Part shown: positions 3,437 to 27,430 of the stretch, piece by piece | Layout of the letters: every line of letters starts with the position of its first letter | Position numbering within the stretch: position 1 is the first letter of the stretch | IMG/VR virus record: IMGVR_UViG_3300031657_000009 | Span: 1-27,430 of that record | Strand: one strand, 5' to 3' | DNA from: a virus | Length of the DNA stretch: 27,430 nucleotides | Notes under the pieces: model-generated | Seen by the model: only the letters and a program-made list of their open reading frames with translations | Databases searched by the model: none | Told to the model about the DNA's origin: nothing | Translations under genes and position numbers: made by a program

Positions 3437-4209
3437 TATGATTTTGGTTTGTTTAAAATTTCCACAATATTTCTAAATATAGATTTTGTATATGAGGTCA
3501 TATCAGATTTACTAATAATCCAATTATAATATCCCGGATCTGTCATATAAACTTCTTGAATAGTTTTATTTTTATGTTTCCCAAACATAAATACAATGCT
3601 TCCCTCTTTTGTTCTTTTTAATTTATTTTCTAAATCAATGGAATCATCATCAAAGGTATATTTATGTATTTCATCCACAGTATCAGGAATAGAATATGCT
3701 TTTTCTAATTCCTTAAGTATGTCTATTGTCGCAATAACATCCACCTCAGCTCCATGAGCTCCTTCTAATTCTTTTCCAAAAAATCTCTTATATGTTCCTT
3801 CAAGTGTTCTTGGTTCGGCTTTTAATAAAATTTGATAAACATCAATAACTTTAAAACTTTTAATACTTATAGGAATTTTAGCTCTTAAAAATTCTTCAAT
3901 TAAAATAGGTATATCAAATCTTTTGCAATTATATCCCCCTAAATCACAATCTTTAATAAAATCATAAATTTCTTGTGCAGATTGTTTAAATGTTGGACAA
4001 TATCTTAAATCTTCAGCTTCAATTCCATGTTTTTCGAAGGCCTCAGGATGAATGGGTCTTCCATCTGGATTTATTCTTAAATTATACTGTTCTCCGTCTT
4101 CATCATTCGGAAATTGTTTTATCATACTAATCTCAATGATACGATCTTCAGATAAACTTAATCCAGTTGTTTCAACGTCAAAAAATACTATTGGTCTTTC
4201 TAATTTCAT
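3436..4209 (-). CDS. DnaQ-like (DEDDh) 3'-5' exonuclease with ExoX-type C-terminal domain, 257 aa
   Basis: The exonuclease domain occupies residues about 6-170. ExoI motif 'FFDVETTGL' supplies D11 and E13, ExoII 'GYNCKRFDIPIL' supplies D99, and ExoIII 'HGAEVDVIAT' supplies H152 and D157, giving the DEDDh metal-binding set. Residues about 205-235 contain 'FMFGKHKNKT' and 'YYNWII', the signature of the small domain (DUF3820/ExoX C-terminal type) found after DnaQ folds in ExoX-like proteins. The enzyme should trim 3' ends of DNA or RNA two-metal style. In a phage it could serve replication proofreading, repair or host DNA breakdown. All catalytic residues appear intact. Confidence 0.9.
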   Translation of the reverse strand: MKLERPIVFFDVETTGLSLSEDRIIEISMIKQFPNDEDGEQYNLRINPDGRPIHPEAFEKHGIEAEDLRYCPTFKQSAQEIYDFIKDCDLGGYNCKRFDIPILIEEFLRAKIPISIKSFKVIDVYQILLKAEPRTLEGTYKRFFGKELEGAHGAEVDVIATIDILKELEKAYSIPDTVDEIHKYTFDDDSIDLENKLKRTKEGSIVFMFGKHKNKTIQEVYMTDPGYYNWIISKSDMTSYTKSIFRNIVEILNKPKS

Positions 4210-4244
4210 TATTTTTTATTTTAACACGTTTTTATTTTTATCTT

Positions 4245-4631
4245 TTAATAATGTAAATCTAAAAATAATATATCTTTGTCATCAGGATATCTAACACAAC
4301 TCCAAACAGGTGTATATTGTTCCATAGTTTCTTTAATTTCTTCATCAGTATATATTTTTATATTTTTTATATCAGGATAATTTTCTTTATTAAGATATTT
4401 TCCATTTTTAATATCTTTATTTCTTTGTTTTACATAATAAGTATCTTCTCCTTCTTTTAAATAAACACCCCAATTATTGTTTTCATAATAATGATCTTCT
4501 ATTCTTTGAGTAACTACTATTGCATCATCTGGTAAATCATGTTCACTTAAAAACTTTTTTAAACGTCCTACTGTTAAAAAATCAGAATACTTTTTTAGTT
4601 CTTCTTTTGATAATTCTCTTATTTTTTCCAT
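4245..4631 (-). CDS. Hypothetical phage protein, 128 aa
   Basis: Residues about 20-60 read 'LTVGRLKKFLSEHDLPDDAIVV', a 'TVGeLi--L--lp-d--Vv' pattern that recurs in small phage and plasmid hypotheticals of unknown function. The remainder is acidic with a Tyr- and Asn-rich turn and ends 'DKDILFLDLHY'. No catalytic or membrane signature is seen. The start lies 2 nt after the upstream stop and is preceded by AAACTATTTTAAT, one of the clearest copies of the leader motif in this window. Confidence 0.65.
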   Translation of the reverse strand: MEKIRELSKEELKKYSDFLTVGRLKKFLSEHDLPDDAIVVTQRIEDHYYENNNWGVYLKEGEDTYYVKQRNKDIKNGKYLNKENYPDIKNIKIYTDEEIKETMEQYTPVWSCVRYPDDKDILFLDLHY

Positions 4632-4632
4632 A

Positions 4633-4956
4633 TTAAAATAGTTTATTTTGATATAACAATTCTAATAAAATTTGTCCATGACATTTTAAATTATCTTTAT
4701 CTTCTATGGTAAAATTTCCACACCAGCACCCTAATATTTTCCCTCTAAGTTCTTCTAAATCTTTTAATAAATATTTACCTTCTCCTTCTGTTATCCATGT
4801 TCTATAAGCCTCTATTGCTTCTTTTACAGTATTAACTTTAAATTTCGCTAACGTTCCTTCTTTATGTGAATATGGATTTCCCCATTTTCCTCTTTCCCCT
4901 TTACCTCTTCCTATATAAACATCATAGGATTCTTTTTTGCAATGTACTACTTTCAT
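4633..4956 (-). CDS. DUF4326-domain protein, 107 aa
   Basis: The order of motifs fits DUF4326: 'YDVYIGRG' (residues about 11-18), 'GKWGNPYSH' (23-31), 'EAIEAYRTWI' (47-56) and 'LRGKILGCWCG' (69-79) followed by a late 'CHGQILLELL'. The conserved Cys and His residues of the second half could bind metal. The domain is common in phages and bacteria, but its biochemical role is not established. The start overlaps the stop of the upstream gene by 4 nt. I am confident of the family and not of any function. Confidence 0.8.
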   Translation of the reverse strand: MKVVHCKKESYDVYIGRGKGERGKWGNPYSHKEGTLAKFKVNTVKEAIEAYRTWITEGEGKYLLKDLEELRGKILGCWCGNFTIEDKDNLKCHGQILLELLYQNKLF

Positions 4957-5225
4957 GTTGTTTCTTTTACTCCTTGTATAGGAACTATTCTAAAATCAAA
5001 ACGAGAAATTGGAATCGTTGTTAGCGCGTCAAAAACATTCGGATATTCAGTTTTTCTAATTATTCTTCCGTTAAACTCCACAAAAGCTTTACTAAAATCC
5101 AGAATTTTTTCAACTTTAATCCTTTCATCATCATAAATAAAAGTTACATATGATGACATGGACAACTGTTTTTCTTCTTGTTCTCTTTCCCAATTTTTTA
5201 TTAATCTTAGTTGTTTATCCATCAA
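4953..5225 (-). CDS. Hypothetical phage protein, 90 aa
   Basis: This is an unrecognised small protein with a charged helical N-terminus (MMDKQLRLIKNWEREQEEKQ) and a beta-rich remainder. Two adjacent ATGs (5225 and 5222) are possible starts; the second overlaps the stop of the ATPase gene exactly. It has no Cys pairs, membrane segments or nucleotide-binding motifs. Tight overlaps on both sides place it in the operon with the AAA ATPase. Confidence 0.6.
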   Translation of the reverse strand: MMDKQLRLIKNWEREQEEKQLSMSSYVTFIYDDERIKVEKILDFSKAFVEFNGRIIRKTEYPNVFDALTTIPISRFDFRIVPIQGVKETT

Positions 5226-6526
5226 AAACCAACCTTCTTTTTAGTAAATATTTCACTTCTGTTATCTTCTTCATAAAAATAAATATCAGACAAAGTCATA
5301 CTTTTTTCTACTTTAACATCTTTGTTACCCAATTTTTTTAAAAGGCTTTCTGATTTATGAGCCACTAATCTTTCAAATGTATAACTCTGAACAAGTCTCC
5401 CTTTTCTTAATAAAGCATCATCTATAACTTTAGTTGAAGTATTAAATGTTGCAACAATAGAAATATTAAGACAATCTGAAAGAAGACCATCAGTTAAATT
5501 TAATATATTTGAAATAGCCCCTGATCTCTCTGTCCCATCTCTTTTTTGCAATGCTGGTTCAGCATCTTCAATGATAAGAATTGAATCACTATTATTCATA
5601 AGAAATGGAATAAATTGAGGGTCAGTAATATAATCAACCATATCAGGGGATACAAATATAATATTTCTATTTACTTTTCCAGATAAATACCGAATCCAAC
5701 TAGTCTTCCCTGTACCTGGTTCACCATTTAAAATATAAAGACCTGTGCGTTTTTTATCATTAAGTTGTTTAATAATAATAGATGATATTTTTTTAAAATC
5801 ATCATTATAATTATCATTAATGCTTATATTAATCTTCTTTACAGCAAAACTTGTTTTATCAAATCCATAATCTCCTTTATAAACAATATGAATTTTATTT
5901 TTTTCAAAATTTTTATTTGTATAATTCGCTAATAGTTTTAAAATATAATAAAAAAGATTATCATCATTTGTGTTTAAGTGCTTATCAGTGTCATAATAAA
6001 AACTTAAATCTTCTACATCAAAATTTAAATATAATCCTTCTTCTAATGCAATAGTAAATTCATCAAGTTCTAAATCCTTATTATTATAATTTTCTATGGC
6101 TAAATAACTTGAAGAAGGAGGATTTGTAAAGGAAAAAAAATCGGTAATAAAACTTTTATCATAACGATCCTGAGAAACTCTATAAATTCCAGGCACTTTT
6201 TTGAATTTTTGTTTGTATATGTATTCCATAAAATCCCATTCGTAATTTGCACGAAAATTAGCTTCATGAGAATTTATGTTCCCAAGTAAGTCATAAATAT
6301 TTCCCCATTTAAAAAGATTTGAATCTAAATTTTTAAATAATATTCCTTTAATATTTTTAAAATTTAAAAAATCATGATCACAAATTATTGGTGGTGCTCC
6401 TTTTTTTGCACCGCGTACTTTTCTTGACATATTATTTTTATAAAAATTAATTGTTCCTTTAATTATAAACTTTCCAAATTCTTCACTTATTTCTCCATCA
6501 TTCCCTAAGAAATCTATACTTGCCAT
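5222..6526 (-). CDS. AAA+ ATPase, BCS1-like, 434 aa
   Basis: The C-terminal ATPase domain is complete: Walker A 'GEPGTGKT' (268-275), Walker B 'LIIEDAE' (317-323), sensor-1 'ATFN' (359-362) and 'LLRKGRL' (372-378), which carries the arginine finger in the BCS1/FtsH-type AAA group ('D--LLR-GR'). The N-terminal about 250 residues are Asn-, Phe- and Tyr-rich without a recognisable domain and probably form a substrate-binding part. Such proteins remodel or unfold partners. BCS1-like ATPases recur in large phage genomes with unproven roles. It follows the topoisomerase gene with a 21-nt spacer, so the two are likely co-expressed. Confidence 0.85.
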   Translation of the reverse strand: MASIDFLGNDGEISEEFGKFIIKGTINFYKNNMSRKVRGAKKGAPPIICDHDFLNFKNIKGILFKNLDSNLFKWGNIYDLLGNINSHEANFRANYEWDFMEYIYKQKFKKVPGIYRVSQDRYDKSFITDFFSFTNPPSSSYLAIENYNNKDLELDEFTIALEEGLYLNFDVEDLSFYYDTDKHLNTNDDNLFYYILKLLANYTNKNFEKNKIHIVYKGDYGFDKTSFAVKKINISINDNYNDDFKKISSIIIKQLNDKKRTGLYILNGEPGTGKTSWIRYLSGKVNRNIIFVSPDMVDYITDPQFIPFLMNNSDSILIIEDAEPALQKRDGTERSGAISNILNLTDGLLSDCLNISIVATFNTSTKVIDDALLRKGRLVQSYTFERLVAHKSESLLKKLGNKDVKVEKSMTLSDIYFYEEDNRSEIFTKKKVGF

Positions 6527-6547
6527 TTTTCTTTTTTTTCTATAACA

Positions 6548-8341
6548 TTATTTGAGAAGCCATTTTTTTCTTTTATTTGAAGAATCCCCAAATGCTATTT
6601 CTAAAAATTTATCTGAGCTCCTATCTTTCACAATTTTAAAAAAAACTTTATTAGACATTACATGTTCCCAATCTGAAATAGATAATGATCCCAATCCTTT
6701 TAAATAGTTTACATTACTAATTTTCTTAGTCTTTGTAAATTTAATAAATTCTTTTGAAGAAAAAAAATATTTTCTACTATTTTTATAGTCACAAGCAACT
6801 AAAGGTGTAATTAATTTAAATAATCTACCCTCTTCTATAATATATGGAAACCATTTATAAAAGAAATTTATTATTAGTGCTGCAATGTGTTGACCATCGA
6901 AATCTTCATCTGTTGCTATAACTATCTTTTTATAATTGGGATTTTTCTTCTCTGATGGATTAATTCCTAAAATACTCATTATTTCCAAAAGTTCTACATT
7001 ATTTGTTAAATCTGATAATTTTTTTGTATTCTTAATTTTCCCTTTAAGGGCATAAACTGCTTCACTCATGGAATCTCTTACTTGTCTAACGGAACCAGCA
7101 GCACTTAATCCTTCTGTAACATAAATGTTTTCTTTATATTTTGATGCTGGAGAATATTTATCTGAAATTTTTCTTTTAGAAATTTTTTGAGCCTTTTTTA
7201 TTTTTTTAATGTTTTCACTATATAGTCTATCTTCAATAGATTGCTCAATTTTAGCTGCTATTTTAGAACCCCTTAATAATCTTAACAATTTTCCTTTCAT
7301 TGTATTCTCAAGTAATTCTTCAATTTCAAATCTTGCAGTAGCATATTTAGTTTTATTTTGATCTGCAAATCTCATAAGATTTGAAGGAACATTAAAAGAT
7401 ATTAATGTATTATAAAAATGGTGTGCTAAATTATAATCAAAAAAGTTGTTAATCCAATCATTAACAATTTTTTGATGAATACCGGTACATTGAGATCCAT
7501 TAATGAAAGAAACTGAACATGAATTTTCATATGAAGGCCATAATATAACAGTTCCCCATTCTTTATTAACTACTTGAATATTATCAATTGGTAAAAAATT
7601 TGAACTATTAAAACTAATTTTCTTGCCATTTTCAATAAAAAACCCATTCAATTTTAATTTTTTTAACTGTGGATCTAATGTGATAAGATATTGTTTAAAT
7701 GATAAATAAGTTTCAATTAATTCTTTATCCCACTTATAACCTGGAAACACCTCAGATGAAGGGGTAAATGAAATTAATGTTCCTATTTTATCGTTCAATT
7801 CTTTCTTCCTACGGTCCTCTTTAACAACCTTATAATCATTCCAATCATAATGAACATAATGAGTTTTATTAACGGTTTTTATTGTAAATTTTTCAGATAA
7901 TATATTTACAATAGCACTACCTACTCCAAAAGTTCCTAATAAATTCGTTGATGAATCAGCAAAATTTGAACCTGCATGTAAATCTTCCATAGCCGTTCTA
8001 ACTATATTCTTTTTGGTTTTAGCGTGTTTCATATTTGCTCTATGAAATCCAGTACCTTCATCTAATATAGTTACTCTATTAGTATCAAAATCTATAGTAA
8101 TATCAATATTTTTCATTTTACCTTTCATTCTTTTTGCTTCATCTAAAGCATTTTCAAGAATTTCAACAATAAGATGCATAAAACCAGGAGACCATATCTT
8201 ATCAACGGACTGTAACTTTCCATCTCTAATAATTGGAAGTCTTTCATCCATCAATGCGACTTGGCCTATATACATTTCACTTCGTAATCTTACAGCATCA
8301 AATATATTAAGAGCAATAATTTCTTTTGCGTTTTTTACCAT
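6548..8341 (-). CDS. DNA topoisomerase II large subunit (GyrB/ParE/T4 gp39-type), 597 aa
   Basis: The GHKL ATPase domain shows 'RLRSEMYIG' (18-26), 'EILENALDEA' with N64, 'DEGTGF' (94-99) and the 'GTFGVGSAI' lid (136-144). The transducer carries 'DQNKTK' (327-332), like the QTK loop. A TOPRIM domain follows with catalytic E410 in 'TEGLSAAGS' and 'ATDEDFDG' (D478, D480, D482). In bacterial GyrB the first motif is usually EGDSA; Leu replaces Asp here. The length matches a fused T4-type gp39+gp60 subunit. With the second subunit it would relax DNA by double-strand passage during replication. It overlaps the Dam stop by 7 nt. Confidence 0.93.
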   Translation of the reverse strand: MVKNAKEIIALNIFDAVRLRSEMYIGQVALMDERLPIIRDGKLQSVDKIWSPGFMHLIVEILENALDEAKRMKGKMKNIDITIDFDTNRVTILDEGTGFHRANMKHAKTKKNIVRTAMEDLHAGSNFADSSTNLLGTFGVGSAIVNILSEKFTIKTVNKTHYVHYDWNDYKVVKEDRRKKELNDKIGTLISFTPSSEVFPGYKWDKELIETYLSFKQYLITLDPQLKKLKLNGFFIENGKKISFNSSNFLPIDNIQVVNKEWGTVILWPSYENSCSVSFINGSQCTGIHQKIVNDWINNFFDYNLAHHFYNTLISFNVPSNLMRFADQNKTKYATARFEIEELLENTMKGKLLRLLRGSKIAAKIEQSIEDRLYSENIKKIKKAQKISKRKISDKYSPASKYKENIYVTEGLSAAGSVRQVRDSMSEAVYALKGKIKNTKKLSDLTNNVELLEIMSILGINPSEKKNPNYKKIVIATDEDFDGQHIAALIINFFYKWFPYIIEEGRLFKLITPLVACDYKNSRKYFFSSKEFIKFTKTKKISNVNYLKGLGSLSISDWEHVMSNKVFFKIVKDRSSDKFLEIAFGDSSNKRKKWLLK

Positions 8342-8709
8342 AGTGAATTGTTTATTTTAAAATTATAATAAAGTGCTTCAAATAACTTTTTTTTATTTTG
8401 ACCTGGAATTGCTGATCCCATATTATTTCTAAGTATAATAAAATCCCAATTTTTTCCTAATAGTTTTAATTTTTCTTCTGAAAAAACATCTGTATATATT
8501 ACATCATCTTTCCAATTTTTAATTATTTCAAGAAACAATTGATATTTCTTTTTGGAAAAAGAATATGTTCCTGATGTCATTTCAACATATGGTGGATCTA
8601 CAAATAAAATTCCACTATCAAATCTTTGAATAAAATCCTTAAAATCCTCATTAAATAATGTAATTTTTTTATATGCATTATTAGTTACATTAAATTTTTT
8701 TTCGTTCAT
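8335..8709 (-). CDS. Dam-type DNA adenine methylase, C-terminal part (separated by a frameshift)
   Basis: This frame carries the catalytic motif 'FVDPPYVE' (residues about 36-43, the DPPY of N6-adenine methylases) and the C-terminal conserved stretch with 'SAIPGQNKKKLFEALYYNF'. The N-terminal half, with the AdoMet-binding site, lies in another frame at 8759-9067. The reading frame of this part is open back through the ATG at 8709 into a stretch coding 'GPNGFNQGWGHRGIGRIQ', which is the expected bridging region of a Dam protein. The ATG at 8709 is therefore probably an internal Met of one original gene. As it stands this piece alone lacks the AdoMet loop. Confidence 0.8.
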   Translation of the reverse strand: MNEKKFNVTNNAYKKITLFNEDFKDFIQRFDSGILFVDPPYVEMTSGTYSFSKKKYQLFLEIIKNWKDDVIYTDVFSEEKLKLLGKNWDFIILRNNMGSAIPGQNKKKLFEALYYNFKINNSLW

Positions 8710-8758
8710 TATTGTTGTGGGTTGTATTCTTCCAATTCCTCTATGTCCCCAACCTTGA

Positions 8759-9067
8759 TTAAATCCATTTGGTCCAAATCATACCATTGAATTTATTGCA
8801 AATACGAGGATCTCCAAAATACCAAATTTCATCAATTACCTCTTTTAATTCATTCCATGTTCCATTCTTAAATGAATAATGTATTTTAAATATATTATTA
8901 TCAATTTCATTCAAATATATTTTTTTTATAAATTTAGACATACATAAGGAAATAGAACCTGAACCTCCAAAAGGTTCAATAAAAATCTTATCAAATCTAC
9001 CATTTAATATTTTTTGTATTCTCGCAGAATATCTGGATTTATTTCCCAAATAAACTATGTAATTCAT
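8759..9067 (-). CDS. Dam-type DNA adenine methylase, N-terminal part (ends early by frameshift)
   Basis: Residues 1-40 read 'NYIVYLGNKSRYSARI' and then 'FIEPFGGSGSISLCM', the G-K-- and F--PF-GsG AdoMet-binding motifs of the Dam/M.DpnII (D12 class) group, followed by 'YLNEID'. The frame runs on to 'NKFNGMIWTKWI' and stops. The adjacent frame continues 'FGPNGFNQGWGH...' and leads into the DPPY half at 8335-8709. A single-base change near 8776-8779 (one T too many on the coding strand, or a +1 slip) explains the break. Methylation of adenines could protect phage DNA from restriction if the two parts are joined or cooperate. It starts 20 nt after a terminator. Confidence 0.8.
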   Translation of the reverse strand: MNYIVYLGNKSRYSARIQKILNGRFDKIFIEPFGGSGSISLCMSKFIKKIYLNEIDNNIFKIHYSFKNGTWNELKEVIDEIWYFGDPRICNKFNGMIWTKWI

Positions 9068-14520: not shown

Positions 14521-15290
14521 TATGCATCATGTTTTAAAATGAATTTATTTGATATAACTTTAAATGATAATCTTCCTTGATAATCTTTCAATGGTCTTGC
14601 ATTTATATTAATAATTTGATCAGCCACAAATACTATACCTTCTCTTGCAGTTTCTCTTAATGCTGATCTTCCATCTGCATATACGAGTAATTCTTCAATT
14701 GTATCTGGAAGAGTCATATCAGTTTCGATAATTGGAACTGTTTCTAAACCCATATCATTAATCATCTTTAAAGAAGAAATGTAAGAAGGAAACACATAGT
14801 CAATTGGAAGAAATAATCTAAAAAATTTAACAGTTTGTCCTTTAATTCTATATTTATTTTTTTGAATACCTTCACCAATAAGTTCTCCTTGAAGAGTTAA
14901 AGCATCCCAATTTGCATCTGTCATATAGCTTCTCATTTTCCCTTCAACATCATTTTCTCTTGCAAATTTCCAAAATGAATTTTTTTCATTATCAGGGTGT
15001 TCCTTTAAATTAAGATTTCTTGAAGCTATTCCAAATTTGTTATCATAAATAAAAAAAGTTGCTGAACTTCCATCTAATTTTTCTGTTGTTATCCAAGTAT
15101 AATTATCCCTATATGTTGCAAAAAGTTCTATTAAATTTTGAATTCTTTCTTCATCAGTTTTAATTGAATGAGAAGGAAATCTTCCTATTGCAGTTCCACC
15201 CAAACAAGCTGGTATAGGTGGATCATATTTTTCAACACCAAGTACATCAGTTAAATCAGTTCCAATACTAAGATTTATTAATTTTTTCAT
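14520..15290 (-). CDS. RNA ligase (DRB0094/Rnl5-like), nucleotidyltransferase half, separate gene
   Basis: This 256-aa piece carries the ligase adenylylation motif 'TEKLDGSS' with nucleophile K71, preceded by 'YDPPIPACLGG', a hallmark of the DRB0094-type RNA ligase family. Later motifs include 'FGIASRNLNL' (motif III region), 'LQGELIGEGIQ' (motif IIIa-like), 'REGIVFVAD' (motif IV, 'EGiV') and 'LSFKVISNKFIL' (motif V, 'fKvis--fll'). The first eight residues (MKKLINLS) are encoded by the tail of the homing endonuclease gene; ligase homology begins at I9. The N-terminal module is at 16137-16481. The pair would seal RNA nicks, for example in tRNA repair, if the halves assemble. The start is inside the endonuclease gene, 20 nt before its stop codon. 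Confidence 0.88.
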   Translation of the reverse strand: MKKLINLSIGTDLTDVLGVEKYDPPIPACLGGTAIGRFPSHSIKTDEERIQNLIELFATYRDNYTWITTEKLDGSSATFFIYDNKFGIASRNLNLKEHPDNEKNSFWKFARENDVEGKMRSYMTDANWDALTLQGELIGEGIQKNKYRIKGQTVKFFRLFLPIDYVFPSYISSLKMINDMGLETVPIIETDMTLPDTIEELLVYADGRSALRETAREGIVFVADQIININARPLKDYQGRLSFKVISNKFILKHDA

Positions 15291-16142
15291 AATTTGTTTT
15301 TTGATATTGATATGGACTTAAACCATATTCTTTTTTAAATTTATAATTAAATGTAGTTAAACTTATATTAAGTTGCTTAGCAACATCTTTAAAATTTTTA
15401 TTATTTAAAAGTAATTTTTTTGCTAAATTTAAATCTATTTTTTTAAATGCTATTTTATTATTTTTGAATTTTTTTGATTTATTTTTAATTAATTCTTTAG
15501 CTTTTTCTTTTCCATATATTTTTTCGAATGTTTTCCCAGATCGCCATTCACTCATTTGTTTCTTTGTTTTTTCTGAATGATACTTATTTAACATAGGATG
15601 ATCATTATATCCTTCTTTTCCCCAAAATTGTGGGGGAGGTTTTATTCCTTTTCTTTTATTTGTTTTTCTTATTTTATTTTTTGTTTTTTCAGATAATGAA
15701 GTATGAGGTATTAATTTATGTGTTTCACTTATTTTTCTTTTATGTTCTTCTGTTAAAGGTACCCCTCTTTTTTTATCTGACATTTTTTTAATAGCTTCTT
15801 TTCCTAAATATCCTCCATCCCCTCCCGGTGACATGTTATATCCTAATTCTTGAGCATTTGTTAAATCAATAAAAAATATTTCTTTTTTATTTAAAATTTT
15901 TGTTAATTCTGTTTTATTTTTTGCAAAATATTCATTAATTTTATGAATAGAAAAATTTTCATAACCATAATGATTCATTGCATCATAAAGTTTTCTATTA
16001 ATTTTTCTTCGGGCTGAATGAATATGTTTATTCCATCTTCCTTGAATATAAAAAGTTTTTCCAAAATAATATTTACCGTTAATTTTATTAACAATAACAT
16101 AAATATAACCTGTCTCCATAAATATATAGTTTTAATTTATAT
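15267..16142 (-). mobile_element. Homing endonuclease insertion, 876 nt, interrupting the RNA ligase gene
   Basis: Removing these 876 nt (292 codons) joins ...GAA ATA GAT to ATT GGA ACT GAT... and restores one ligase frame reading LEID-IGTDLTDVLGV. Almost the whole insertion is the endonuclease gene: about 23 nt precede its ATG and none of note follow its stop. Both borders share TAT, so the exact join is ambiguous by about 3 nt. There is no room outside the ORF for a group I intron core, and no intein motifs occur. Confidence 0.8.
15268..16119 (-). CDS. GIY-YIG homing endonuclease inserted in the RNA ligase gene, 283 aa
   Basis: The GIY-YIG nuclease domain shows 'YIYVI' (5-9), 'KYYFGKT' (16-22), catalytic-type R28 and a later Glu in 'NKKEIFFIDL' (about residue 79). 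'YNMSPGGDGG' ends the domain. Then come NUMOD3-like DNA-binding repeats ('LTEEHKRKISETHK', 'SEKTKKQMSEWRSG') and a C-terminal helix-turn-helix ('FKDVAKQLNISLTTFNYKF'). This is the usual layout of phage homing endonucleases such as the I-TevI/Seg group. It starts 17 nt behind the stop of the ligase N-terminal gene and its end overlaps the start of the C-terminal gene. It probably cuts intact ligase alleles and spreads by repair copying. Confidence 0.9.
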   Translation of the reverse strand: METGYIYVIVNKINGKYYFGKTFYIQGRWNKHIHSARRKINRKLYDAMNHYGYENFSIHKINEYFAKNKTELTKILNKKEIFFIDLTNAQELGYNMSPGGDGGYLGKEAIKKMSDKKRGVPLTEEHKRKISETHKLIPHTSLSEKTKNKIRKTNKRKGIKPPPQFWGKEGYNDHPMLNKYHSEKTKKQMSEWRSGKTFEKIYGKEKAKELIKNKSKKFKNNKIAFKKIDLNLAKKLLLNNKNFKDVAKQLNISLTTFNYKFKKEYGLSPYQYQKTNYEKINKS

Positions 16143-16481
16143 ATCTATTTCTAAAAGGAATTTATTATCTTTTTTAATAAGTTTGCCAATTGAATTTAAT
16201 ATTGTTAATGGAAAACATATTCCCTGACTTACCTGATTTCTTAAGCGAATAGTTTTAATTCTAAATCCCCTTGAACGAAGAAATTCAAATTCTTCTCTAT
16301 CAGGCATTAAAGAATCAATTTCACAATATACACAAAGATCGCCACCTTTAAATTCCCCTTTTCGGATTACAACATTCCACCCACGAATAACAGCTCTTTC
16401 AATAGCATCCGCATCTTTAATTGGATGAATTTCTAAAATTTTTTCTATTGTTGCTAATTTTCTTTCCTCACTATTTTTCAT
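16137..16481 (-). CDS. RNA ligase (DRB0094/Rnl5-like), N-terminal module, separate gene
   Basis: This 114-aa piece matches the N-terminal OB-like module of DRB0094-family RNA ligases: 'RKLATIEKILEIHPIKDADAIERAVIRGWNVVI' in blocks at 7-39, then 'GDLCVYCEIDSLMPDREEFEFLRSRGFRIKTIRLRNQVSQGICFPL' in blocks at 47-92. It ends 'FLLEIDI' and stops 3 nt into the inserted element. The nucleotidyltransferase half is the separate gene at 14520-15290. The break falls just past the module, so non-covalent reassembly is plausible. In the family this module is thought to help RNA sealing rather than adenylylation. Confidence 0.87.
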   Translation of the reverse strand: MKNSEERKLATIEKILEIHPIKDADAIERAVIRGWNVVIRKGEFKGGDLCVYCEIDSLMPDREEFEFLRSRGFRIKTIRLRNQVSQGICFPLTILNSIGKLIKKDNKFLLEIDI

Positions 16482-25513: not shown

Positions 25514-25561
25514 TGTTAATATATAGTTTATATGTTATATGTATTAAATCTTAAAAAGTTT

Positions 25562-26296
25562 ATGATTAAGAAAAAATTTAATTTTGTTTATATATCTACT
25601 AATTTAATAAATGGAAAACAATATGTTGGTGATCATTCAACTAATAATTTAAATGATAATTATTTAGGGAGCGGAACTTATTTATCTAATGCAAAGAATA
25701 AATATGGCAAAAAGAATTTTCACAGAAAAATTTTGAAGTTTTTCAATACAAAACAAAAGGCATTTAATGCTCAAGAAGAGTTTATTAATCAATTTAATAC
25801 GCTAAAGCCTAATGGATATAATATAAGTCCCAAAGGTGGTCATGGAATTAGAGGTTGCTGGAGTGAAGAATCTAAAAATAAATTAAGTAAATCTAATAAA
25901 GGACGAATTTTTTCAGAAGAACATAAAAAAAAATTATCAGGTCCAAAGTCTGAGGAAACAAAACAAAATATGAAAGAAGCTTGGAAAAAAAGAAGAATAA
26001 ATCATCCTATAACAAAAGAAACAAGGAGAAAAATAAGTAAAGCCAATAAGGGAAGGAAACGTTCTTTAGAATCTAGAAAAAAAATGGCCTTAGTTTGGTT
26101 AGGACGGCATCATTCAGAAGAATCAAAAGAAAAAAATCGACAATCTCATTTAGGAAAAAAACACACAGAAGAAGCAAAAGCAAAAATAGCCAAGAAATTT
26201 AAATGTACTTATTGTGGGAGAGAAATGAATATAGGAAATTTAAATAGATGGCATAATGAAAATTGTAAATTTAAACCTCATTTTTTAAATCGATAA
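25562..26296 (+). CDS. Free-standing GIY-YIG homing endonuclease with NUMOD3 repeats and zinc finger, 244 aa
   Basis: 'FVYISTN' and 'KQYVGDHS' (about 8-14 and 20-27) are the GIY and YIG blocks. The middle shows several NUMOD3-type repeats ('SEESKNKLSKSNKG', 'SEEHKKKLSG', 'TKETRRKISKANKGR', 'TEEAKAKIAKKF'). The end is a C-x2-C...H-x3-C zinc finger. The start 25562 gives a normal short N-terminus; an ATG at 25532 would add ten residues. It is the only plus-strand gene in the window, lies between the split enzyme and the tail genes, and overlaps the enzyme's stop by 19 nt in convergent fashion. It is probably a mobile gene inserted independently of its neighbours. Confidence 0.87.
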   Translation: MIKKKFNFVYISTNLINGKQYVGDHSTNNLNDNYLGSGTYLSNAKNKYGKKNFHRKILKFFNTKQKAFNAQEEFINQFNTLKPNGYNISPKGGHGIRGCWSEESKNKLSKSNKGRIFSEEHKKKLSGPKSEETKQNMKEAWKKRRINHPITKETRRKISKANKGRKRSLESRKKMALVWLGRHHSEESKEKNRQSHLGKKHTEEAKAKIAKKFKCTYCGREMNIGNLNRWHNENCKFKPHFLNR

Positions 26297-26766
26297 AAAG
26301 CATTATTTGTTATAAATACCCATTCTGCTTCTCCTATAAAATCATCTAAATTTTTAGCTCCACAATAACTCATATTAGATCGAAGATAATCTTCAAAATT
26401 TTCAACCCATTGTGGTAAATTATACTTAACTTTTTGATATTTAGTTATTCCTTCGGCAGTAATTAATTTTGTTTTGCCCCATTTTCGTTGTACTGCTTTA
26501 GTACTCATTCCTCTATATTTTTTCTTTATAGGAAACCCCCATTTCCAGAACATTTTAGCTAAATTATAAGGAAGTTTTATATTCCATAAATAATTAAATC
26601 CCGCACTTTGTAATGTTTTATTAAAAAGGGAACCAATCATTACATAATCTGAGTTATGAACTATATTTCCTTCTATATTATAAGTATGATCATTCTCTAT
26701 ACTTAAATCATAAACCTTACCTTTATAAGTATATTTTTTTTTAGTTTTTATTGGAATTAATTTCAT
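26278..26766 (-). CDS. C-terminal split intein fused to the C-terminal part of an IMPDH/GMP reductase-family enzyme, 162 aa
   Basis: Residues 1-38 form a complete C-intein: 'GKVYDLSIENDHTYNI' (intein block F with the Asp/His core) and 'GNIVHN' then S39 (block G: His-Asn plus Ser +1 extein nucleophile). The following about 124 residues are the end of an IMP dehydrogenase/GMP reductase: 'SDYVMIGSLF' (as in GADaVMlGs), 'KKYRGMSTKA' (flap, GM(S/G)S), and 'LRSNMSYCGAKNLDDF' (as in lRs-m-YcGA--l-el). The ATG at 26766 gives a 38-residue C-intein, the length of natural split inteins; a TTG at 26793 is directly preceded by a stop. The N-half lies upstream, outside the window. Trans-splicing should join the halves. 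Confidence 0.85.
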   Translation of the reverse strand: MKLIPIKTKKKYTYKGKVYDLSIENDHTYNIEGNIVHNSDYVMIGSLFNKTLQSAGFNYLWNIKLPYNLAKMFWKWGFPIKKKYRGMSTKAVQRKWGKTKLITAEGITKYQKVKYNLPQWVENFEDYLRSNMSYCGAKNLDDFIGEAEWVFITNNAFYRFKK

Positions 26767-27430
26767 ATAAAATAGTTTTAGTTTTTTTATCAATTACATT
26801 TACAACATAAATAAATCCTTGTTCCTCTGCAAATTTCTTTTTTAAAATAATATTATTTAAACATTCTTTTCGAGAAGTCCATTCACTCTTTACTTCTATA
26901 ATTTTATTTAAAGATTTAATAAAAATATCAGGTATATGTTTGTGTTTTTTACCATTTTTATCAATCCACTTAATAATAGGACAATTATATCCTGTTAATA
27001 TATCTTTTTCATTTATATTGTTTTCTAATAATAAATCTAACATTATATTTTCATAACCCATTACATAAACTTTTCTTCCAGATGGAAATTTATATTCTTT
27101 AATATTATATAAATTCCTATTTATCTTCCTTTGAATATCCATACTTTGAAATCCATATTCTACTCCATATAATTCTTTCATTTTTTGTCTTGCGCGTTTA
27201 ATTGAGATATCTAATAATAAAGCATTTTTTACGCCATAACGATAAAGCATAGTATTCTTTACTTTTTCTTTTATTTCTTTCAATTGCCATGGATATTCAA
27301 CGCCATATTTTATTAATGATGTTTTTACTTTTTTACTTTTTATAAATTCTAATTTAGATGGATTATCTACTCCGTATTTTTTTAAACATGTATTTTTATA
27401 TTTTTTAGAATTATTAAAATTTTCATCTCC
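26741..27430 (-). CDS. Homing endonuclease-like protein with YG repeats and PD-(D/E)XK core (truncated by window edge)
   Basis: The frame is open to the window end; 229 residues are visible. They contain four tandem 'KYGVDNP...' type repeats (DUF723-like, at about 19, 42, 64 and 87 in the visible part). A domain follows with 'MGYENIMLDLLL' and 'HIPDIFIKSLNKIIEVKSEW', which fits a PD-(D/E)XK nuclease core (PD, then EVK). YG repeats bind DNA in homing endonucleases. It ends at TAA 26741, 26 nt past the start of the split-intein gene and in another frame. It thus lies where the intein's endonuclease would be, as in fractured split-intein genes. A TTG at 27283 is not needed as start. Confidence 0.75.
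   Translation of the reverse strand, partial: GDENFNNSKKYKNTCLKKYGVDNPSKLEFIKSKKVKTSLIKYGVEYPWQLKEIKEKVKNTMLYRYGVKNALLLDISIKRARQKMKELYGVEYGFQSMDIQRKINRNLYNIKEYKFPSGRKVYVMGYENIMLDLLLENNINEKDILTGYNCPIIKWIDKNGKKHKHIPDIFIKSLNKIIEVKSEWTSRKECLNNIILKKKFAEEQGFIYVVNVIDKKTKTILYEINSNKN

What the first reader, a model, noticed from the sequence alone, without database searches (positions are those of the whole stretch)
26278..27430. IMPDH/GMP reductase-family gene fractured by a split intein with an endonuclease gene in the break
Seen: a 38-residue frame with intein blocks F and G (HN then Ser) is fused to the end of an IMPDH/GMPR protein. It has its own ATG inside the last 26 nt of a separate homing endonuclease frame, which carries YG repeats and a PD-(D/E)XK core. 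Established: fractured genes with split inteins and endonucleases, including an IMPDH example, are known from environmental phage DNA. Inference: this is another case. The intein splits the enzyme just before 'DYVMIGS', the nucleotide/phosphate-loop region, while the IMPDH-1 intein I recall sits at the catalytic-Cys loop ('SICSTR'). It may therefore be a new insertion site paired with a different endonuclease class.
Basis: partly seen in the sequence, partly recalled or inferred. Interest (0 to 1): 0.88.

Follow-up and report, generated by a model that had tools for sequence, protein, structure and literature searches.

The report
Phage enzyme gene fractured by split intein
The end of this phage contig holds the last two of three pieces of an enzyme gene broken up by a self-splicing protein element and its DNA-cutting gene, at a position and with a cutter type that differ from the related cases we could check; in one relative the same enzyme gene is broken in two places, so three separate proteins would have to be stitched into one enzyme.

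Summary
Confirmed and extended. On the minus strand of window 26278-27430 a 38-aa C-intein (ending HN|S) is fused to the C-terminal third of an IMPDH/GMP-reductase-family enzyme. Its ATG lies in the last 26 nt of an endonuclease ORF (DUF7487) that runs off the contig. The missing upstream half was found in two other phage contigs; L003 has the whole set: GMPR-N::N-intein, endonuclease, C-intein::GMPR-C. Intact relatives read ALALG-ADYVM; carriers read ALALG|C...HN|SDYVM. Matching frames, overlaps and junctions, plus purifying selection on all parts, exclude an assembly error. The same gene family carries split inteins at two other sites in the catalytic-Cys loop (where I recall the IMPDH-1 split intein), with Vsr-type endonucleases. 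The site reported here (b) carries an unrelated YG-repeat PD-(D/E)XK endonuclease. In one relative (L002) both elements occur in one gene: its middle piece is C-intein::54-aa extein::N-intein, so the enzyme would need two trans-splicing reactions. Carriers of the b element do not form one host-gene clade (AU p = 1.5e-5), which fits horizontal movement or repeated loss. Kind: new variant of known 'fractured genes'. Splicing and cleavage are inferred, not shown.

The parts
26653..26766 (-). C-intein (38 aa, blocks F and G, ends HN), own ATG at 26766-26764
   Evidence: Sequence; 84% and 66% identical to C-inteins of L002 and L003 at the same site; Pfam Intein_splicing E=0.0044
26278..26652 (-). 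C-extein: last 124 aa of an IMPDH/GMP-reductase-family enzyme, beginning with Ser+1 (SDYVMIGS...), stop included
   Evidence: Pfam IMPDH E=4.3e-9; 77% identical to the matching part of intact L004
26741..27430 (-). Homing endonuclease ORF, 5' part missing (contig end): YG repeats followed by a PD-(D/E)XK-like domain; putative catalytic residues E127, D168, E179, K181 of the partial ORF
   Evidence: Pfam DUF7487 E=3.7e-46; 76% and 68% identical to L002 and L003; the four residues invariant in 11 homologues
26741..26766 (-). 26-nt overlap of endonuclease end and C-intein start, in different frames
   Evidence: Sequence; a corresponding overlap with the ATG in the same place in L002 and L003

Best explanation
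This is the downstream part of a fractured phage gene. The full unit is three same-strand genes: (1) the N-terminal two thirds of a GMP-reductase/IMPDH-family enzyme fused to an N-intein; (2) a separate YG-repeat PD-(D/E)XK homing endonuclease; (3) a C-intein fused to the rest of the enzyme. The two precursors are translated separately, the intein halves associate, and Cys1 / Asn / Ser+1 chemistry excises the intein and joins ALALG to SDYVMIGS, giving an intact enzyme with Ala changed to Ser at the junction. The endonuclease is expected to cut the intact allele at the same site, so that repair copies the intein halves and the endonuclease into it. Shown: anatomy, exact insertion point, conservation, purifying selection, patchy distribution. 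Inferred: splicing, active enzyme, cleavage of the empty site, and the window's own N-half.
For: Complete unit in L003 and both downstream parts plus N-intein in L002; intact relatives define the insertion point; Cys1, T-x-x-H, HN|S present; 88 of 90 uninterrupted ORFs have Ala where all three carriers have Ser; dN well below dS in all parts; inteins cluster by insertion site; b carriers are not one host-gene clade, AU p=1.5e-5; element and flanking genes give different closest pairs; PD-(D/E)XK-type motif with weak profile and fold matches.
Against: The window's N-half is not seen. No splicing or cleavage data. The endonuclease's target site is unknown, and an endonuclease tree does not resolve the order of the three copies (AU p=0.43 for L002+L003). 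Patchiness could also come from repeated loss.
Confidence: 0.87

Rival explanations
1. A normal contiguous intein with an internal endonuclease domain, made to look split by single-base assembly errors.
For: Contiguous inteins with internal endonucleases exist in this gene family: L238 has one at site a1.
Against: The same two frame changes, with ATGs in the overlaps, occur in L002 and L003, which are only 57% (full-length endonuclease) to 83% (C-extein) identical to each other; the same errors would have to recur.
Confidence: 0.02
2. The unit is a decayed remnant: the intein halves no longer splice and the enzyme gene is dead.
For: No experiment; Intein_splicing match of the short C-half is below the Pfam cut-off; the L002 N-intein departs from the L003 one in its first half.
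Against: All frames are open and the splice-junction residues kept in three contigs; dN/dS is about 0.1-0.4 in every part.
Confidence: 0.07
3. The three ORFs are read as one protein by programmed frameshifting, giving a contiguous intein.
For: The frame changes have the same direction at both junctions in L002 and L003.
Against: Each downstream ORF has a conserved ATG inside the overlap. In the related a1 and a2 units the ORF spacing differs and some ORFs are separated by gaps, as expected of independent genes.
Confidence: 0.02

Closest known systems
Fractured genes with split inteins, including IMPDH-1 (Dassa et al. 2009, doi 10.1093/nar/gkp095; paper not held here, content from memory and citing papers)
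   Same: Phage enzyme gene of the same family split into two ORFs by intein halves with an endonuclease ORF between them.
   Different: Insertion is just before DYVMIGS rather than in the catalytic-Cys loop; the endonuclease is DUF7487 PD-(D/E)XK with YG repeats rather than Vsr-like; L002 carries two such fractures.
Site a1 and a2 split inteins found here (L047, L138, L147; L156, L168, L169)
   Same: Same host gene family and related intein halves (N-halves 38-48% identical to b).
   Different: Different insertion points; endonucleases of EDxHD/Vsr-like type with no detectable similarity to the b endonuclease.
gp41-1 split intein (PDB 6qaz)
   Same: Best match of the joined L003 intein halves among solved structures (E=5.3e-5).
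   Different: Host gene, site and most of the sequence.
Free-standing DUF7487-type phage endonucleases (L094; Vibrio phage VB_VaC_SRILMA)
   Same: YG repeats and nuclease domain.
   Different: Those lie between ordinary genes, not inside a split intein.

Membership tests
Fractured gene with split intein | Host gene in two same-strand ORFs that join to an uninterrupted homologue | tested here: met
   L003 pieces align end to end with L004 at Gly|Ala; the window holds only the second piece
Fractured gene with split intein | N-intein with nucleophile at position 1 and block B Thr-x-x-His | tested here: met
   L003 and L002: CFLP... and STNNHHYYV / STDNHHYYV; not visible in the window
Fractured gene with split intein | C-intein ending His-Asn followed by Ser/Thr/Cys | tested here: met
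   HN|S in window, L002, L003
Fractured gene with split intein | Endonuclease ORF between the halves in its own frame | tested here: met
   L003 and L002
Fractured gene with split intein | Protein trans-splicing | not testable with these tools
   Needs expression
Vsr-like (EDxHD) endonuclease family of the originally described fractured genes | Vsr-like catalytic domain | tested here: not met
   DUF7487 with PD...EVK motif and no Vsr match; the a1 endonuclease does match Vsr-type models weakly
IMPDH-1 intein allele | Insertion in the catalytic-Cys loop | tested here: not met
   Insertion is at ALALG|ADYVM, 54 residues downstream of site a1
PD-(D/E)XK nuclease | Conserved E, D and E-x-K in an alpha/beta nuclease fold | tested here: inconclusive
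   Residues invariant in 11 homologues; T7 endonuclease I profile E=0.015; Foldseek best E=0.006 to PA endonuclease, low TM-scores
GMP reductase (rather than IMPDH) | Curated GMP reductase model above its cut-off | tested here: inconclusive
   Intact L004 protein: best model GMP reductase PRK05458, E=1.2e-30, but 107 bits against a cut-off of 344

The most novel reading that the evidence does not exclude
In a close relative (L002) the same enzyme gene is fractured twice by two related but different split inteins with unrelated endonucleases, so the enzyme is made by natural tandem trans-splicing from three proteins. Its middle protein is IntC-a1 :: 54-aa extein :: IntN-b, the layout used artificially to make cyclic peptides, so the two inteins must be orthogonal or the middle piece would circularise. 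The window's host-gene lineage contains carriers of each element, so the window's phage may itself be doubly fractured.
Probability: 0.6. Interest if true: 0.82.

Novelty: new variant of a known kind. Interest (0 to 1): 0.67.

Why it matters
It adds an insertion site and a different endonuclease class to fractured genes, indicating that split-intein halves can be paired with unrelated nucleases. L002 supplies what looks like a natural three-piece enzyme, a direct test of whether related split inteins living in one gene have evolved orthogonality. It also yields new candidate split inteins related to the kind used for protein ligation.

Tried and rejected
Contiguous intein with assembly error, and programmed frameshifting: rejected from the parallel structure of L002 and L003. 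Extending the window by exact match of its last 51 bases in viral contigs: no hit. Two scans of cellular genomes: the first (a site-a1 N-half as query) found nothing; the second (intact GMPR) found intact genes and one contiguous intein at site a1 (L238), no b site. Named phage records listed showed no intein at b: matches to the L003 N-half stop at the splice point and matches to the C-half start at it, apart from weak alignments. Whole-chain Foldseek gave weak matches only (best E=0.006, low TM-scores). An endonuclease tree could not order window, L002 and L003. Literature: no paper on DUF7487 and none found on two natural split inteins in one phage gene; the founding paper is not held. An earlier count gave the L002 middle extein as 59 aa; recounted it is 54.

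Full report
OBSERVATION. The window is an IMG/VR contig of 27,430 bases. On its minus strand the last frame before the contig end is an open endonuclease frame (229 aa seen, stop at 26741). Starting with an ATG at 26766, inside its last 26 nt and in another frame, is a protein of 38 intein residues ending HN, followed by SDYVMIGS... and in all 124 residues of an IMPDH/GMP-reductase domain.

THE MISSING HALF. Two viral contigs hold close relatives. L003 (162-kb contig) is complete: ORF 3734-4879 is the N-terminal part of the enzyme ending IIKALALG and running straight into CFLPSTLVYTKNGF..., an N-intein with a T-x-x-H block B; frame 4848-6011 is the endonuclease (first ATG at 4866); frame 5998-6486 is the C-intein plus C-extein. 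L002 has the same three elements. In intact relatives (for example L004-L008, L013, L014, L016, L018, L019) the sequence is ...ALALGAD[YF]..., so the insertion lies between Gly and Ala, with Ala replaced by the Ser that splicing needs. Of 90 uninterrupted ORFs scored, 88 have Ala and 2 have Ser there.

NOT AN ARTEFACT. Frame changes, start codons and overlaps agree between contigs. Pairwise dN/dS is about 0.14-0.31 for the C-intein, 0.27-0.37 for the endonuclease, 0.36 for the N-intein and 0.08-0.2 for the C-extein (values); all parts look to be under purifying selection, although synonymous sites are partly saturated.

OTHER SITES IN THE SAME GENE. Scans with the intact enzyme and with the L003 N-half brought in loci fractured elsewhere. 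Site a1, GTG|C...HN|SGCTT, occurs in L047, L138/L139, L147 and L002, with an endonuclease that matches NUMOD3 and weakly Vsr-type models; from memory this is the site of the known IMPDH-1 split intein. Site a2, GNGGG|C...HN|CSTT, occurs in L156, L157, L168 and L169; there the +1 residue is the catalytic Cys itself. Inteins of the three sites are related (N-halves 38-48% identical between sites) and group by site in a tree. A contiguous 373-aa intein sits at a1 in a contig binned with Ignavibacteriales (L238).

A GENE BROKEN TWICE. L002 begins with the tail of an a1-type Vsr-like endonuclease. Its next ORF (66-770) is IntC-a1, then 54 residues of enzyme (SGCTTAAN...IIKALAIG), then IntN-b. The DUF7487 endonuclease and IntC-b::C-extein follow. 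The first piece lies off the contig, but the middle piece alone implies two splicing events. An IntC-X-IntN protein is the layout used to cyclise peptides (general knowledge), so cross-reaction of the two inteins would be harmful; orthogonality is predicted, not shown.

THE ENDONUCLEASE. It belongs to DUF7487 (E=3.7e-46 in the window, 5e-67 in L002). An AlphaFold2 model of the L002 protein (mean pLDDT 78, pTM 0.36) shows a series of helices followed by a mixed alpha/beta C-terminal part. E292, D333, E344 and K346 (E127, D168, E179, K181 of the window's partial ORF) are invariant in 11 homologues, which fits a PD-(D/E)XK site. T7 endonuclease I matches the profile weakly (E=0.015), and Foldseek's weak matches include influenza PA endonuclease and RecE, nucleases of the same fold superfamily (low TM-scores, so only supportive). 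It has no detectable similarity to the a1 endonuclease of L047. Two relatives examined elsewhere are free-standing genes.

MOBILITY. In the C-extein tree the window's enzyme lies with intact genes (L004, L013, L014, L016), away from L002 and L003, which are nearest to L138, L147 and L019. A single clade of b carriers is rejected (p=1.5e-5). C-extein and the neighbouring downstream gene unite L002 with L003 (83% and 58% identity, against 70% and 38% for window-L002), whereas C-intein and endonuclease unite the window with L002 (84% and 76%, against 71% and 68% for L002-L003; bootstrap 0.91 and 0.99). The intein tree agrees (96/96), but an endonuclease tree with outgroups is unresolved. Likewise the IntC-a1 of L002 is closest (88%) to that of L047, whose extein is of the L004 type. 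This fits transfer of both elements between two phage lineages; repeated loss cannot be excluded.

MECHANISM AND NOVELTY. Most likely the two precursors trans-splice to restore the enzyme while the endonuclease spreads the unit into intact alleles. It is the known 'fractured gene' kind with a different site, a different endonuclease class and, in L002, a double fracture. The founding paper could not be read here, so priority for the site and for double fractures must be checked against it and later intein databases.

Noticed in passing
window 14521-16481 (-): An RNA ligase gene appears to be in two pieces (OB-fold part 16138-16481, ligase domain 14521-15290) with a GIY-YIG endonuclease ORF (15269-16119) between them; no group I intron was detected by Rfam and no intein residues were seen, so it may be a gene in pieces or an unrecognised intron.
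   Followed up: partly
window 25532-26296 (+): A GIY-YIG/NUMOD3 endonuclease ORF lies convergent to the fractured gene, its end overlapping the C-extein stop by 19 nt.
   Followed up: no
window 8336-9067 (-): A D12-class adenine methyltransferase seems to be in two ORFs (8760-9067 matches the N-terminus of the family; 8336-8709 carries a DPPY motif): perhaps decayed or frameshifted.
   Followed up: no
L238 692-2866: Contiguous 373-aa intein at site a1 of the same enzyme family in a contig binned with Ignavibacteriales, a possible unsplit counterpart of the split inteins.
   Followed up: partly
L156, L168, L169 about 4950-7490: Split intein inserted directly before the catalytic Cys, which serves as the +1 residue, with a further type of endonuclease ORF between the halves.
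   Followed up: partly
L003 about 4780-4879 and L002 about 665-770: The b-site N-intein carries a conserved tail of about 35 residues (…IFSKIYI.YLKL…) that the a1 and a2 N-inteins lack; function unknown.
   Followed up: no
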